NCBI GenBank assembly: GCA_018902385.1
Contig: JABSSW010000001.1
Location: forward strand, 806,001 to 870,000
DNA: 64,000 nt
From: Physcia stellaris
Taxonomy: Eukaryota > Ascomycota > Lecanoromycetes > Caliciales > Physciaceae
Direction of reading: 5' to 3'
The notes under the pieces are model-generated. The model made no database searches. It was not told the origin of the DNA and saw nothing but the letters and a program-made list of their open reading frames with translations. The position numbers and the translations under genes were made by a program. This document shows, in pieces, positions 1 to 18,740 of this stretch; the stretch's first letter is position 1; the number at the start of each line of letters is the position of its first letter.

Positions 1-3000
1 ATCGAATGTTTACGCGAAATCAAAATTCATCGAAAAATGCAAACAAACATCGAGAACGATCAAATCGATCAAAAAAAAATATCAAAACAACGACAAAATT
101 GAAAATCTGTGAAAATCGTACAAAAAAGTGAAAAATCGCTTGAATCACGTAATCTCTAAAATCATGAAAACACAATACAAAAAAAAAATCGAAAAAAAAT
201 ATGATACATCAAACAACATGTGAAAAACATGCAAATGAACAAAAAATCGTATTTCAAAAAAAACTTGTTTGTCGATTTTACACGATCATTCATTCATATT
301 GTTCGAAACTGATTCAATCAAAAAAGCACTCATATTGCTGAAAAAGTTTTTTTTTTCGCCGTTTACGATTGTTCTAATCGACATACAAAAAATCACATAC
401 AATCAAAATCTGAAACTGAAAAACATACAATTTCACGAGATGACGAAAATCATAATCAAACAAAATTCGAGCAAAACTTCAAACGACGACGACATAATCA
501 ATAAAATATGAAAATGAATAAATGATATAATCGCATCACATTTGCAACGTATATACAACGTCAATCTGAACGAAAATTACTGTTCGAAACATTTTCGAAA
601 ATCGATCACGATCGCACTACGTAAATCAAACAAAAATATCTATTCAATGACGATCTCGTACAAATCAATAATTTTATTCAATATTATAAACAAACTCATG
701 AAATTCATACTGATCAAACGAATCAATTTTTTGACGAAAAAACACGATTTGCTGTCACGCACACATTTCGAAATCAAAAAAGTCGTGTTTACGAAACACG
801 CACTACACTACATGATAAAACGAATACACTCGACATGAAACAAAAAATTAATAATCGTGATCATGTTTCTCGACGTGATGAACGTTTTCGACAATATAAC
901 GCGTTTAAAATTGTTACACAATCTCAAAATGAAACGTTTAAACGAAAAACTGATACGATATATTGACTTTTTCTTGTTCAATAAAATGACGATATTGAAA
1001 ACGAACGAATACGATATCGAATGACTCGAAATATTCATAAAAATTTCACAAAACTCATCGATGTCATCGATTCTTTTTCTCTTTTACAACGCACTTTTAC
1101 TGAAAACTTTGAAAAAAAAAAATATTTCAACGAGCGAGTTCGTCGACGATGTAAAAATGCTGACGAAAAATCACATTTTCGAAAAATGCAACGATATTAT
1201 AATCAAAACACACGAAAAAATTTGCGTATCGTGAACATTAAAACATGAAATGAAATTTGCATTTTTCAAATATCAACTCATTTATTTCAACCGAAAAAAA
1301 AAAACAAACGTCATCGAATCGATATTATTTTTTGAATTTAATCAAAAAATCAAAACAAACAAAAAAATGAAATATTTGAACGTCATAATGAACGAAAAAC
1401 TCAATTGAAAAACACAAATCAATCAAAACAAAACGAAAACATTGAAATCAATAAAAACATTACGCAATCTTGACGACACTACATGAAATGTTAAACTCTC
1501 GAAAATGAAACAAATAATGCAAACGATTTTCGTTTCACAATTCACATACGCATGCTCGATGTGATACACGTCGACGAAAAAAAAAAATCACAACAAAAAA
1601 ATAACGAAAAAATTAACGAACGTTCAATATCAAATCGAAAAAATCATAACGAAAACATACAAAACGATTTCGAAAAAAGCGCTCAACATCGAAATCAACT
1701 CAATGTTCATGCATTTACGTTTGAACAAACTCATCAATGCATTCGCAATGAAATTGATAACAAATTCAACATACGACACGATTATACGCGATCGTTTCAT
1801 CAAAAAATCGAAAAACGTCAACTCATTGAAAAAACTAATGAATAGATTCGAAAGAAAAACGAACATCAAAACACACGATATGAAAAAATTTTTTTTTTGT
1901 CGCATCGTCATGATTTAACATCGTCAATTGCACATATCATGAAAAACAAAAAAAAAAATCGAAAAATATCATAAAATACAATTAACAATGAATTCGATCA
2001 ATTACATATACACAAATGAAAACGACATTAACGACAAAATGAATGCAACAACGATATTCTCAGAAACGAAATCTACTACAACGAAAACGTATTTGAAACT
2101 CACTACGTCATACACGATTTACTTTGTTGAATTATACGACATCGTTTTAACAATGAATATGCGATTGCATTCGTTTTTGAAATTTGCAAAAAAATCGAAA
2201 CTCGTCATATGCATCGACAATCAAACAACAATTCAAACGATGCTCAATTCAAAAATCAACTTCGATCAGTATTTGATGAAATGAATAGTTTGATTGATCA
2301 ACGAACTGCGAAACAAATATATTGAAATGAAATTGCATTGAATTTCGATTCACATCGATATCGAAAACAACGAACAAACAAACGTTGCGATCAAACAAAT
2401 CACGAAATGAAAACTGAAAAAACGAAAAAAAAAAAAAAAAAATGAACATCGATCACAAAACACAACAAACGAGCGTGCAAATGCTGAAAAACGTCGTCAA
2501 AATCGTGATGAATAAATCGATAAAACAACAATGAAATCAAAAATGAAAAAATTGCAATAAAAAAAGAAATTTGTACAAAATTACATCGAAATTCAATAAA
2601 ACAATATTGCGATTACACGAAAAATTCACAAAAAAACTCAACGTCATAACAATACAATTTCGCACGATCAAAATAAATTTACGAACGTTTCTATACAACA
2701 AAAAACAAATCGAAAATCTCATGTGCTCATGCATGTGTAACAAACAGACGATCAAACACGTGCTTTTCGAATGCAAAAAACTGAAAAAACTTCGCAAAAA
2801 TCTATGAATTGACGAAATTAAAAAAGCGAAATGAAAAAAAATAAAATTGATGAACGTATTGATCAATTCGATCAATTTGACAAAAACGACAAAATTTATC
2901 GAAAAATTCGAATTCATTGATTATTTACGAGTCTCAATTACGAACGACGAAAAATAAAAACTGCAAAAAAAGTGCATTGAATTGAAAACTTTCGTACAAA

Positions 3001-3197
3001 ATGAAAATGAAAAAAAATCATGAAAATAAAAATGTTTGAAATGATTTGCTTGAATAAAAAAACAAAACATCAAAAACAAATAATTCTGTATAGAATCAAA
3101 AATCTTCTAGAAGATGATTGACTCGATTGTTTTTAGCCGCATAACGGACCCTTAAGGTCGGTTTCGAGTGCTTAATGAATCAATCAATCAATCAATC
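1..3197 (+). mobile_element. Tad1-type LINE retrotransposon, 5'-truncated by the window edge and heavily mutated
   Basis: Relics of the LINE ORF2 can be read in order on the plus strand. A pre-RT linker lies at 269-511. RT fingers and palm lie at about 542-1250, with an FLDV catalytic motif near 870 and FVDD near 1140. An RNase H domain lies at 1988-2284 (YTNE for YTDG, then FVEL and IDNQ). A CCHC-type RVT zinc finger lies near 2700-2790 (CSCMC, then HVLFEC). Segments from 269 to 2284 share one frame despite many stops; the zinc finger is in another frame, so an indel lies between about 2284 and 2571. Many stops fit TGG to TGA. GG is absent up to about 3140, CC occurs about twice, and AG only about two dozen times, while CA, TG and CG are frequent. 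The copy is dead. The assignment rests on remembered family motifs and is strong. Confidence 0.93.
3178..3197 (+). repeat. LINE 3' terminal (AATC)5 tandem repeat
   Basis: Five perfect copies of AATC form the last bases of the element and follow about 90 bp of unmutated 3' tail. Short tandem repeats of this kind typically end target-primed retrotransposons and mark the insertion junction. Ordinary single-copy sequence starts right after. Confidence 0.8.
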
Positions 3198-3332
3198 TCC
3201 GTAGGGTTGCTAGATCTACTGTAAATCGGTACCTCGTAATTCCGTCCTCGTGTTGCTCGCGTGCCCCTGAAATTTCAATTCAACGTCAACTTCGTGGTCC
3301 AATTCGCTGCCCTCACACCCTTTTGTTCCGTA

Positions 3333-4771
3333 ATGGCAGACCGGTGGTCTTCCCACCGGGGTTCATGGCAACTTATCTTGCTTCTCCTTCTTCTCGCCTT
3401 AGAGCCCGCAACCGCAGAAGTAGACCGGCGCCCTCCAATAGCTCGGATGAAGGCAGCGGAGATCGAAGATGCACTTCATGTGAGCTCTTTGATAGATTCT
3501 GATCGCCTCGTGTTGGCGACGATGCCATTCCTCCACTGAATATTGGTAGCAATGTCCAATTGTTCAAGATCTCGATCGGCATCTAGCCAACAGCAATCCT
3601 CCCACCTCATCCCTCGCCTCACAGCTCTTTTCCATCCTATTCCCATCTTCGCCAGCAGTCAATGCTCTCCTTGCAACCCTCTACATCTCTGGCCCACCAA
3701 GTCTGTCATTCCTATACCGCCTCACTCATGTCTCCTAAGCAAAATCAGATTTTCTCCTCGCGCTGTGCCCGCCAAATATCGACCCTTCTTCCCTCTCCGT
3801 CATGGTCGCCTTTGCAGTCGGTGGACTTCTGGGTGATACTCTCTTCCACCTCCTCCCCGAAATCTTCCTCGGAGAAGCCGAGCCAGACCACGCGCGCTTT
3901 GTCCTTGTGAATCCGAACAAGAACTTGCTACTCGGCGTAGCGATCATGGTTGGCTTTCTGACTTTCGTCGCTATGGACAAGGGGCTCCGCATTGCCACTG
4001 GTGAGGAGGGACACACCCACGACCACAGTCACAAAAACGAGGAAGCCAGTCCGGAAAAGCAAGCAACAGCAACGAGCAGCAGCGCAGCCCCGGAGCCCCA
4101 ACCAGATTCGCTCAAGTCCCGAAAGCCAACAAAGACCGATATCTCCCCCTCTTCCAACGTTATCCAGCCTGCATCTCAAGCATCGACCTCGATTCGCCTC
4201 TCCGCCTACCTCAACCTCATTGCAGACTTCACCCATAACATAACCGACGGCCTTGCCCTCTCCTCATCGTTCTACGCCTCGCCTACTCTTGGTGCCACCA
4301 CCACCGTTGCTGTCTTCTTCCACGAGATCCCGCATGAGGTCGGTGATTTTGCTTTGCTGATACAGTCCGGCTTCTCGAAGCGAATGGCCATGGGAGCACA
4401 ATTCGTCACTGCTCTAGGTGCCTTTCTGGGCACTGTCCTAGGAATCCTAGTACAAGAGATGGGGACCGGTGGAAGTGATGGGGCACTAGAAGGAAATACA
4501 GAGTCTTTCGGGGCGGACGGGTTAGCGGGGACAGGATTGGGGTGGGGAGATCTGCTTCTCCCGTTTACGGCGGGAACGTTTTTGTATGTGGGTACTGTGG
4601 CAGTGATTCCGGAGCTGTTGGAGACTGGGCCCAACAGAGGCCAAGAGCTGAAGAAAACGGGGATGCAATTTTTTGCCATGGCGATTGGGGCTGGGATCAT
4701 GCTTGCGTAAGTCAACTGTGTTACTATGGAATCCATGGGCTAATCGTTGACTTAGAATATCGTGGTCATAG
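3333..4771 (+). CDS. ZIP family zinc transporter (Yke4/SLC39A7-like)
   Basis: Moves zinc across an intracellular membrane, most likely out of the ER or Golgi lumen into the cytosol. Four exons, 3333-3479, 3550-3700, 3749-4706 and 4756-4771, give 423 aa. The ATG at 3333 opens an N-terminal hydrophobic signal (LILLLLLLALEP). Then come a TM segment (AVNALLATLYISGPP), another with GGLLGDTLFHLLPE, a His-rich cytosolic loop (GHTHDHSH), and the two signature metal-binding helices HNITDGLAL and HEIPHEVGDFALL. The last exon holds only the ending ISWS. All three introns have GT-AG ends and restore frame. The HEIPHE form and the signal peptide favour the LIV-1/Yke4 subgroup over plasma-membrane Zrt1. 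The gene begins 135 bp past the LINE tail, so its promoter lies at the insertion site. Confidence 0.9.
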
Positions 4772-15753: not shown

Positions 15754-18740
15754 GGACCTCCCAACTCCGAGATCGGAGTCACTGTACATAGAAACAGCAT
15801 GGGAAAAAGGATCGGGAGTTTATGGAAGCTATCAGTGGAGGCGTGATCCCTCTAAGCGTTGGTTTGCTACATTACGTTCACGTCTTTTATCTCATCAAAG
15901 CATTCAGCATACACTAGCGAGCGTCTTTTCAAAGCATTACACTGTACAGGAGGACGGATTTATACCCTTGCCACACGTTGGTCGGCCGGAGAGTGGCACT
16001 TGTGGTGGTTTTTGGCTTTCGCTGGCTTCTTTGGTGCGCCGTATACCACACACGGGAGGATAGCTCGAGTCTGATGCATGATATAGCAGCACTTGCTTGT
16101 TGACTTGCAAATCGAGCGTCTACTTCTTGCAACTGCAAACTCTGTGAAAGTTTAGGTCGTTGAGTCTGACAAAGTAATAGACGAGGGTGGATCTGCACTG
16201 TTGTCACAGAACGCAAGAAGCAAAGACCAAATAGTCAGTTGCCTCTTGGGTACTGCTCTCATGCACTCAGGTCAAGAATCTTTCCCAAAAGCCATGTGCT
16301 GATTGGAATCAAACCATGAGCAGGAGCTGAAACCACAGTCAGCCTGCCCTCTGCTCACTGCCCTCTGCTCATGGTAATTACAAGGTTTACGTCTTGAGCA
16401 CTGACTGTTTTGGGGAACCTTGCTCTAGGCATTGAAGCATACAGCTAAACAGCTTTACTAGCTAGAGGACTCCTGTTGTTTCCATTTGTGCATAGTGATC
16501 TTACTGAATGCTAGATCTCATCTTCCATAGGACACTTTCTGCTCAAATAACCAATGCTGAGTGGTTCTCAGGGCGGTCCTTCATGTACAGGAGGTTTTGC
16601 TCAACAGGGTAGTTGAGATGGGAATGACAGAATCAAACGATTGGTAAGTGATCACATCGATAACAATGTAATATTGCGTCCTTCTTTTCAAGGCTAAATA
16701 GCAAGATTGGGCCAGGAATGTGACCGCTTGGGATTGGGTGAAGATGTATTACGACCTTGGATGATATCTCAGATATTATCTGTGATATCAAGCCCTTCAA
16801 TATACCCAATACCGGTTGTTCGAGTGTTCCATGACACGCGAGATTCTAAAGCTTATGGTAAAACTATTCACACTCGGGGGAAGGTGGGTGTTCTGTGCAC
16901 ACAGAGGGTCCCTCGTAATCACTACTCCAGCTTCAAAGCACCACAGATGATTTCTTTTTACTCCTAGAAATACTTTGCAAAAGCATTTGACCGCGTCCCC
17001 AAGCAAATCAATCCCATCAGTCATAACATACTTTGGGACACAGCTCGTGAAGATGACCCTCCATTCATCAGCGCCTGCTATCTAGCAATCTCGACTTCCA
17101 TGGGCTGGCATGGCTCACTTTTCGAATGTCTACCAGCCCATGGCATACCTTGTTCCACATGGGATGTAGCTGCTATCGCATGTAAGTTGTATTGGCATAA
17201 AGACATGCTCTAAATGTACATGAGAATCATGAACCACAAGCATGATGGAGTACCAGTAAGTAGCATGCAAGCTATTACAACCTTCGTGTCTCTCCAGCTC
17301 CTATTTGTCCTGGACCCTGACTTAGTTGAGCAATTTCTGTTCAATTTCGACAGCACTATTTGTTCAGTATTGAAGATTATTGACGTTGAGCTATGGTAGG
17401 GATTCGTGTCAGACATCGATGACTCACGCTTATCAAGGCCTCAGCTACTTATAGATCGAGTCTTGAGATTCAACGTCTGAGCAGATGTCAACAGGAAGAC
17501 ATTTGAAATCTTGATCACCGAATCCATATATAGAGTGACCAGTCGAAACATTGTGTAATCGTGACTTAAAATGGGTGATTTTGCATCGACCTTGACAGAG
17601 TGCTGAATTACACATTCTTCCTCAATTTTCTTTGCCAGCTCTAGCTGAAATCTATCTTCAATATGTTAAAAGGTTACAATCCTAGTCTACTCTCTGTTGG
17701 ATCTGATCTATTTCAACTGGGGAAATTGTCTGACCTGACTATCCATTCAGTAGACATTGCCAACAGCTGAAAATCATGACTAGTAAGTAATTGCAGTCCT
17801 TTCATCAGAGTATTGTGCCATGTTGTTTGGAGCTAATGAATCGACTGGATCGGGGAAAAAGTCCTCTAGAGTTGAGTATACTACTTATCTAAAGAAGACT
17901 TGAGCAATGCTCTGTGCAGCCTTATCCTTGAACGAGGTAATCGTTGACAAAGTCATAAAAAACCATAAGAGCGGATTCGATCAAGAAGGTGACCGCTTTG
18001 GAACCTACATTGATGGTGTCTTAATCGTGTTGGCTGAAGAAGGCTGGGAAAGTACAATGTTGGAAGTGCCGTGGACTCTTGACTGCAATGACGTCTCCAG
18101 AATGAATCGTCTTTTCAGATGACATGTAGACATTGCGGCAGAGAGCCCTAAACGCTCAAGACTTTGGAACGGAAACTGAGCTTGACGGATACATGAGATA
18201 TTCGATGAGAAGTCTAAGGAATGCTGATAATGTCGATCGCTAGAGAGCTAATCGAGATGCGTCGTACCACGAGATTTGATGGAGCAAGATGTGTCCTTCG
18301 TCTCACACTCTATAGCATGACATGAATATCTGCAATCTCCATCAGTTGGACTTCGAAATAAGGACTAAAGGCGAGCCGCCGTATCGCTCATCGTTGAGAC
18401 CATATCCTTTTACGGTGCCCTAGATCCTCTACCGAAACCGCCTTATGAGTACCTCTTTAGGGATGGATTCATGGACCACGTAAAAATGCTGCCAGACCAA
18501 GTTGAAATCAGTTCATAAGACAATGATACTCAATATTCGATTATTTTATACGACAAGAGAGCAGACTTTAACTTTCGGCCAATAAATTTTGGCTAGCTAT
18601 ACAACGTTCAAATATTTTATGTAAGAAAAGATATCCTGATGACAAAGATGCATAATTAATAGAAAGTCAAACACCATCGCTTTATGTACGCTTGCTCGAT
18701 TATCTGCCGCCAAAAACTTAGGGAAGAAATGAAGAAAAAC
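15754..18740. other. Gene-poor 3-kb region
   Basis: No recognisable gene. Short open stretches occur, at about 16965-17200 (containing KAFDRVPKQINP and WDTAREDDPPF), 17214-17399 and 17907-18122, but they carry no domain I know, no convincing splice chain and many stops. The last 300 bp, before the DUF2417 gene end, are AT-rich. It could be decayed genes, an old transposon remnant or plain intergenic DNA. Confidence 0.5.

What the first reader, a model, noticed from the sequence alone, without database searches (positions are those of the whole stretch)
1..3090. LINE mutated with a non-canonical context: GG and CC erased, AG depleted, CA/TG/CG spared
Seen directly: no GG dinucleotide from 1 to about 3140, CC only about twice, and AG about two dozen times, while CT is common (roughly 85 by extrapolation from the first kilobase) and CA, TG and CG are frequent. 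Codon-level traces against the family consensus fit C-to-T at CpC and CpT, on both strands but more complete on the minus strand. Examples are Gly GGN to GAN, Trp TGG to TGA, Pro CCA to TCA and Leu CTN to TTN. Canonical RIP converts CpA to TpA, so CA and TG should be lost; here they are kept, and CpG is kept too. This suggests a RIP-like or deaminase process that favours C followed by a pyrimidine, with strand asymmetry.
Basis: partly seen in the sequence, partly recalled or inferred. Interest (0 to 1): 0.8.

Follow-up and report, generated by a model that had tools for sequence, protein, structure and literature searches.

The report
Repeat-mutating defence with inverted target preference
A fungal genome carries transposons riddled with C-to-T mutations almost only where the C is followed by C or T, the reverse of the CpA preference usually reported for this kind of genome defence, so the usual tests for it score this DNA as untouched.

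Summary
Window 1-3090 has GG 0, CC 2, AG 21 and CT 74, against CA 267, TG 156 and CG 180. It is the 3' part of a LINE; 40 of 81 candidate matches in the 44-Mb genome were scored, itself included. Against the least-mutated copy, 30 fetched loci give C-to-T at CpC 92-93%, CpT 82-84%, CpA 9-12%, CpG 5-10%. Cleanest case: two lightly mutated full-length copies differ at 514 of 5,887 columns, all C/T or G/A, at CpC 192, CpT 317, CpA 5, CpG 0; no transversions. A second LINE family agrees. A nested insertion and 3 of 5 fetched DNA-transposon loci lack GG/CC. Mutation fades near element ends, and most single-copy flanks are normal. Two RID-like and one DIM-2-like methyltransferase genes are present.

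Best reading: RIP with inverted preference, CpC>CpT>>CpA>CpG. Published orders put CpA first and CpC last. Standard RIP indices read negative. The enzyme is inferred. Strand asymmetry belongs to this copy only. Two 95%-identical Gypsy copies are unmutated, unexplained.

The parts
1..3197 (+). 3' part of a LINE (non-LTR retrotransposon) copy; it continues left of the window to about C1:795862 and is interrupted there by a 7.45-kb insertion
   Evidence: 28 of the 40 scored genome matches end at query 3195-3198; left part found in L009 and L052
1..3090 (.). CpY-depleted tract: GG 0, CC 2, AG 21, CT 74; CpA, TpG and CpG kept
   Evidence: alignment to L036 (L011 row)
648..1379 (+). reverse transcriptase domain of the LINE (approximate, carried over by coordinates from copy L028)
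   Evidence: PF00078 match at C24:428884-429615, which lies inside the L028 copy C24:427066-430262; the transfer to window coordinates is arithmetic
3100..3197 (+). 3' end of the element that escaped mutation, ending in a short tandem tail (AATC/TCAA units)
   Evidence: first GG at 3146; in the window copy 0 of 8 CpY sites changed at reference positions 4650-4700, and in pooled copies the fraction falls from about 0.87 to 0.42-0.68 over the last ~125 bp
3198..3500 (.). unmutated flank outside the repeat
   Evidence: GG+CC 11-18 per 100 bp immediately downstream (L011 row)

Best explanation
The LINE copy was mutated in place by a repeat-directed C-to-T process of the RIP (repeat-induced point mutation) kind, whose target is C followed by a pyrimidine (CpC strongest, then CpT) and which practically ignores CpA and CpG. 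It acts on duplicated DNA, on both strands, copy by copy, and fades out within about 100 bp of the repeat ends. Shown: the spectrum, both strands, independent mutation of copies, more than one transposon class, confinement to repeats in most copies, and recency. Inferred: direction C-to-T in the fresh pair, action before meiosis, and that one or both RID-like methyltransferases of this genome carry the altered 3'-neighbour specificity.
For: Spectrum against the least-mutated copy: CpC .92/.93, CpT .82/.84, CpA .09/.12, CpG .05/.10 for +/- strands. Sister copies L026/L028: 514 of 514 substitutions are C/T or G/A; context in the copy that holds C: CC 192, CT 317, CA 5, CG 0; one gap column. Per-site in that pair, with contexts restored: CC 210/252, CT 299/721, CA 5/824, CG 0/734. 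Second LINE family, L007 and L008 against L001: CC .97-.99, CT .84-.90, CA .06-.12, CG .03-.04. DNA transposons L046, L047, L049 hold GG 0-3 and CC 0-2; L046 and L047 differ at CpT 103, CpA 32, CpG 10, CpC 2 and 24 transversions, which is 103 of 131 CpT sites against 32 of 310 CpA and 10 of 292 CpG. In-frame stops: DDE_1 matches 44 TGA, 3 TAA, 0 TAG in 10 rows; reverse-transcriptase matches 249 TGA, 33 TAA, 3 TAG in 149 of 150 rows (retyped). TGG to TGA is the CpC change; TGG to TAG would be the CpA change. Borders. RID-like, DIM-2-like and mating-type alpha-box genes. 2 of 10 arbitrary 1-kb samples carry the signature, one strongly and one partly, and none has TpA/ApT above 0.82.
Against: Two Gypsy copies (L002, L003) share 94.9% identity over 3.5 kb and are not mutated, with differences only slightly enriched at CpY. 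Of 5 fetched DDE_1 loci, L045 and L048 are not depleted. Of 23 3' flanks, L017, L023 and most of L024 are depleted, and L013, L021 and L039 are depleted in the first 100-200 bp; whether these are further repeats or spreading was not settled. No cross, methylome or knockout exists here, so timing and enzyme are untested. Mutation of a duplicated host gene was not shown; the rRNA search did not complete. Most heavily mutated copies also carry CpA changes of 10-27%, so CpA exclusion is clean only in the freshest copies; the DNA-transposon pairs also show some CpA and CpG change. In the fresh pair the 5' base has some effect: GpCpT 50/200 against ApCpT 70/150 and TpCpT 146/294.
Confidence: 0.77

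Rival explanations
1. An APOBEC-like cytidine deaminase edits retrotransposon cDNA during reverse transcription, at C before pyrimidine.
For: Context-restricted C-to-T; this copy is more complete on the minus (cDNA) strand.
Against: Both strands are hit about equally in the freshest copies (0.49/0.51 and 0.45/0.39). DNA transposons, which are not reverse-transcribed, lack GG and CC too and differ from each other mainly at CpT. 8 PF00383 matches were found; only the best was read, and by eye it is a dCMP deaminase with introns, the other 7 not examined. APOBEC-type Pfam families were not searched.
Confidence: 0.04
2. Slow decay: repeats are methylated at CpY (DIM-2-type non-CG methylation) and 5-methylcytosine deaminates spontaneously over time.
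For: A DIM-2-like gene is present; DIM-2 prefers CpT in Neurospora (PMC13297926, passages).
Against: In L026/L028, 509 of 973 CpY sites changed in one copy against 5 of 1,558 CpA and CpG sites, with 0 transversions in 5,887 columns. That is more than a hundredfold over the other cytosines, beyond what spontaneous 5mC decay is known to do (general knowledge).
Confidence: 0.08
3. RIP-like mutation carried out mainly by the DIM-2-type enzyme rather than by RID.
For: DIM-2-like gene open over at least 1,009 aa; CpT preference known for DIM-2 methylation.
Against: In Neurospora the DIM-2 pathway targets single-copy regions flanked by repeats (PMC12543289, passages). Here mutation fades before the element ends and most flanks are clean, although 6 of 23 flanks show depletion.
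Confidence: 0.1
4. The family simply has a CC/GG-free ancestral sequence, or amplified from an already mutated master.
For: Saturated copies look alike.
Against: Less-mutated copies keep their CpC sites (about 319 in the aligned 4.7 kb of L036, from the site totals), and L026 and L028 lost different CpY sites.
Confidence: 0.01

Closest known systems
RIP of Neurospora crassa (RID-dependent)
   Same: C-to-T on both strands of duplicated DNA, copies hit, RID homologues present. CpT changes can be prominent there too: RIPCAL found CpT overshadowing CpA in Tad1 copies (PMC2621366, passages).
   Different: Published order CpA>CpT>CpG>CpC (quoted in PMC5496416, passage); here CpC>CpT>>CpA>CpG. TpA/ApT is not raised and CpA is not depleted.
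RIP with a CpT component (Magnaporthe oryzae, Botrytis cinerea, Sclerotinia sclerotiorum, Colletotrichum truncatum, Anisogramma anomala)
   Same: [quoted passage not shown] Botrytis and Sclerotinia (PMC2432034; PMC4352252) and Anisogramma (PMC10998396), all passages, also have two RID homologues.
   Different: CpA is also a target in each: primary or secondary bias in the first three, co-dominant in Anisogramma; in C. truncatum the families labelled CpT have TpA/ApT 1.6 and CpA+TpG index about 0.1, so CpA is nearly exhausted (PMC6180176, passages). CpC is not named as a target in the passages seen. Here CpA is intact and CpC is the best target.
RIP of Trichoderma reesei
   Same: Repeat-directed C-to-T in an ascomycete.
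   Different: Preference CpA~CpG, then CpT>CpC (PMC5496416, passage): CpG is a main target there and 0 of 734 sites here in the fresh pair.
CpG / TpCpG mutation in Microbotryum and other basidiomycetes
   Same: Repeat-associated C-to-T with a non-CpA context.
   Different: CpG target and a Masc2-type enzyme only (PMC4352252, passages); here CpG is the least affected context.

Membership tests
RIP (repeat-induced point mutation) | C:G to T:A transitions on both strands of repeated DNA | tested here: met
   514 of 514 substitutions between L026 and L028 are C/T or G/A; both strands
RIP (repeat-induced point mutation) | confined to repeats, single-copy flanks spared | tested here: met
   GG/CC normal outside both ends of L026 and L028 and of the window element; by my reading 17 of 23 3' flanks show no clear depletion, L017, L023 and most of L024 are depleted, L013, L021 and L039 in the first 100-200 bp only
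RIP (repeat-induced point mutation) | all sufficiently long and similar repeats are hit | tested here: inconclusive
   LINEs, a nested insertion and 3 of 5 fetched DNA-transposon loci are hit; Gypsy pair L002/L003 at 94.9% identity is not
RIP (repeat-induced point mutation) | preference for CpA (most species) | tested here: not met
   CpA 5 of 824 sites against CpC 210 of 252 and CpT 299 of 721 in the fresh pair
[quoted passage not shown]
   window tract 0.42 and 1.27; rest of the window 0.72 and 1.26; thresholds from PMC6180176
RIP (repeat-induced point mutation) | RID/Masc1-family methyltransferase encoded | tested here: met
   L043 and L041, 39% identical over 170 aa of the catalytic part, both with a PCQ motif; the assignment to RID rather than DIM-2 is by recalled motif pattern, not by a tree or family model
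RIP (repeat-induced point mutation) | depends on RID and occurs between fertilisation and meiosis | not testable with these tools
   needs crosses and knockouts; a mating-type alpha-box gene is present
APOBEC-type cDNA editing | mutations on one strand only, in reverse-transcribed elements only | tested here: not met
   strands near symmetric in fresh copies; DNA transposons also depleted

The most novel reading that the evidence does not exclude
A RID-family enzyme, perhaps one of the two paralogues, has switched its 3'-neighbour recognition from purine (CpA) to pyrimidine, giving a RIP system with strict CpY specificity. This system is invisible to TpA-based RIP screens and may be common among fungi now scored as RIP-negative.
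Probability: 0.55. Interest if true: 0.85.

Novelty: new variant of a known kind. Interest (0 to 1): 0.75.

Why it matters
A 2025 survey of 1,239 fungal genomes concluded that RIP-like defences share a preference for CpA (PMC12543289, section 9 read). This genome is a clear exception: CpC, last in the two published orders seen here, is the best target, and CpA and CpG are left alone in fresh copies. The RIP indices in general use therefore read negative on DNA that is saturated with mutations, so surveys based on them can miss such systems. Comparing this genome's RID-like proteins with those of CpA-type fungi gives a direct route to an open question: which part of the machinery sets RIP's sequence preference. 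It also predicts a different kind of damage: new stops come from Trp codons (TGG to TGA) and hardly from CAA, CAG or CGA codons.

Tried and rejected
cDNA-editing deaminase: rejected by strand symmetry in fresh copies and by DNA transposons with the same depletion. Inherited CC/GG-free ancestor: rejected by less-mutated relatives. General strand asymmetry: rejected, one copy only. The deaminase hit with 4 in-frame TGA (C64) looked like a mutated host gene but by eye is an intron-containing dCMP deaminase gene with normal dinucleotides, so in-frame stops alone are not proof of mutation and the stop tallies may include intron stops. Pfam search of five short fragments of L036 found only a weak zf-RVT match below its cut-off. 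The open DDE_1 copy L045 is too distant from the mutated ones for a base-by-base table; the mutated ones were compared with each other instead, where L046 and L049, 81.6% identical, differ at CpT 58, CpA 35, CpG 36, CpC 1 and 74 transversions. PDB search with one RID-like fragment listed 43 sequences, bacterial methylases, DNMT1 and DNMT2 by name, and none named RID. In 14 papers looked into (13 by passages only, PMC12543289 by abstract, passages and section 9) I saw no report of CpC as the main RIP target; preprints and most subscription papers are not held. Clutterbuck 2011, cited, was not read.

Full report
What was seen. In window 1-3090 GG is absent, CC occurs twice, AG 21 times and CT 74 times, while CA (267), TG (156) and CG (180) are plentiful. 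Base composition alone predicts about 41 GG and 89 CC, and the first GG is at 3146. In a scan of 300-bp windows no other part of the 64 kb has a CpY index under 0.35.

What the sequence is. The stretch is the 3' part of a LINE. The window lies at C1:806001-870000 of an unnamed 43.97-Mb genome. A DNA search scored 40 of 81 candidates, all 40 matching, the window itself included; 28 of the 40 end at query 3195-3198. A reverse-transcriptase match (C24:428884-429615) lies inside copy L028, which places the domain near window 648-1379. The window element starts about 10 kb to the left and is split by a 7.45-kb insertion that is itself CC/GG-poor (CC 5, GG 22 in 7,451 bases).

Direction and context. 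I used the least-mutated copy, L036, as reference and tabulated the other 30 fetched loci that match it. L009 and L011 are two fetched pieces of the window's own element and overlap by about 500 aligned bases, and L010, a duplicate of the window, was dropped. Pooled C-to-T fractions on + and - strands: CpC .92/.93, CpT .82/.84, CpA .09/.12, CpG .05/.10; the 5' neighbour hardly matters in this pool. L036 is itself partly mutated: its only open frame of 250 codons or more lies outside the aligned part, and sister copies carry C where it has T. So I also compared two lightly mutated full-length copies on contig C24, L026 and L028. Over 5,887 aligned columns they differ at 514 positions, every one a C/T or G/A difference: CpC 192, CpT 317, CpA 5, CpG 0, with no transversion and one gap column; 819 CpA and 734 CpG sites are intact in both. 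With contexts restored from whichever copy holds C or G, 210 of 252 CpC, 299 of 721 CpT, 5 of 824 CpA and 0 of 734 CpG sites changed in one copy. In this pair the 5' base has some effect: GpCpT 50 of 200, ApCpT 70 of 150, TpCpT 146 of 294. The divergence of these two copies is the signature of one process, recent on the scale of ordinary mutation.

Other elements. A second LINE family (L007 and L008 against L001, which has no stop in its reverse-transcriptase match) gives CpC .97-.99, CpT .84-.90, CpA .06-.12, CpG .03-.04. Of five fetched DDE_1 DNA-transposon loci, three (L046, L047, L049) have GG 0-3 and CC 0-2, and two (L045, L048) are not depleted. In-frame stops are 44 TGA, 3 TAA and 0 TAG in the 10 DDE_1 matches, and 249 TGA, 33 TAA and 3 TAG in 149 of the 150 reverse-transcriptase matches, 10 of them without a stop. 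Some stops may be intron stops. A change of TGG to TGA is the CpC change on the other strand, whereas a CpA process would give TAG. Of 10 arbitrary 1-kb samples, one carries the signature strongly and one partly, and none has TpA/ApT above 0.82; ten is too few for a genome fraction.

Borders and strands. Outside both ends of L026 and L028 and of the window element GG and CC are normal. Mutation fades before the ends: at the 3' end the fraction falls from about 0.87 to 0.42-0.68 within the last ~125 bp; at the 5' end of the window element GG and CC persist for about 100 bp inside it, and the first 50 columns of the L026/L028 alignment hold no change. Of 23 3' flanks, L017, L023 and most of L024 are depleted throughout and L013, L021 and L039 in the first 100-200 bp; the other 17 show no clear depletion by my reading.

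Machinery. Four methylase-domain matches fall in three genes. L042 has a long open frame with DUF7893 and a methylase domain and resembles DIM-2; L043 and L041 resemble RID/Masc1, are 39% identical over 170 aa of the catalytic part, share a similar N-terminal stretch, and have normal base composition. The names rest on recalled motif patterns, not on a tree. Two RID homologues are known in Botrytis and Sclerotinia (PMC2432034, passages; PMC4352252, passages) and Anisogramma (PMC10998396, passages). A mating-type alpha-box gene is present. Eight cytidine-deaminase-type matches were found; only the best was read, by eye a dCMP deaminase.

Mechanism. The most likely account is RIP by a RID-type enzyme that reads C followed by a pyrimidine. 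Shown: directed C-to-T, both strands, copy-by-copy, repeat-limited in most copies, in LINEs and in DNA transposons, recent. Inferred: timing before meiosis, enzyme identity, and whether the chemistry is methylation plus deamination. Editing of cDNA is contradicted by strand symmetry and by DNA transposons. Slow decay of methylated CpY is contradicted by the near absence of background substitution in the fresh pair. DIM-2 as the main agent is less likely because its Neurospora pathway targets single-copy DNA flanked by repeats (PMC12543289, passages), which is mostly not seen here.

Against. Gypsy copies L002 and L003 share 94.9% of DNA over 3.5 kb and 99.1% of protein over 775 aa and are unmutated, with only a slight CpY excess among their differences (CC 42, CT 37, CA 31, CG 23, other 42). 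They may have entered after the last sexual cycle or may be protected; I cannot tell. Many saturated LINE copies show 10-27% CpA change. The six depleted flanks are not classified.

Comparison with print. N. crassa: CpA>CpT>CpG>CpC, and T. reesei: CpA~CpG, then CpT>CpC (PMC5496416, passage). CpT as a strong target is not new: RIPCAL saw it overshadow CpA in N. crassa Tad1 (PMC2621366, passages), an Ascomycota survey names CpT to TpT as the dominant form by alignment (PMC7882544, passages), and Amselem 2015 found CpA, CpT or CpG signatures in ten genomes and linked CpA and CpT to RID (PMC4352252, passages). Badet and Croll conclude that RIP-like defences share CpA preference (PMC12543289, abstract, passages and section 9). 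Other papers, seen only as passages: PMC5555474, PMC7493409, PMC4522978, PMC13297926, PMC7862722, PMC4133081. What I did not find in nine searches is a CpC-first, CpA-sparing RIP; preprints and most closed papers were out of reach.

Consequence. The standard indices read 0.42 and 1.27 in the mutated tract and 0.72 and 1.26 in the rest of the window, so both call the tract RIP-free; an index built on CpY reads 0.065 against 0.906. The finding is a new variant of a known kind, with an enzyme question that can be tested directly.

Noticed in passing
L002 (C5:1165021-1168497) and L003 (C12:58812-62288): Two Gypsy-type elements with long open frames, 94.9% identical in DNA but 99.1% in protein over 775 aa, escape the mutation process: either a recent arrival of two related lineages or protection.
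   Followed up: partly
window 16250-18000: A CpG-poor, lower-GC stretch (1-9 CpG per 250 bp against 10-20 around it) between a kinase-like and a hydrolase-like open frame (names by eye), without the CpY signature; its cause is unknown.
   Followed up: partly
L041 (C6:791557-792528) and L043/L044 (C5:498855-499792): Two diverged RID-like methyltransferases in one genome, differing around the catalytic motif (SPPCQSFS with EETFGL; SPPCQFFS with EQTSGL); candidates for the specificity switch.
   Followed up: partly
   Followed up: no
L040 (C4:701391-704049): A diverged, probably older copy with more CpA (.18-.27) and CpG (.15-.30) change than most others; it may record ageing or an earlier, broader process.
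   Followed up: no
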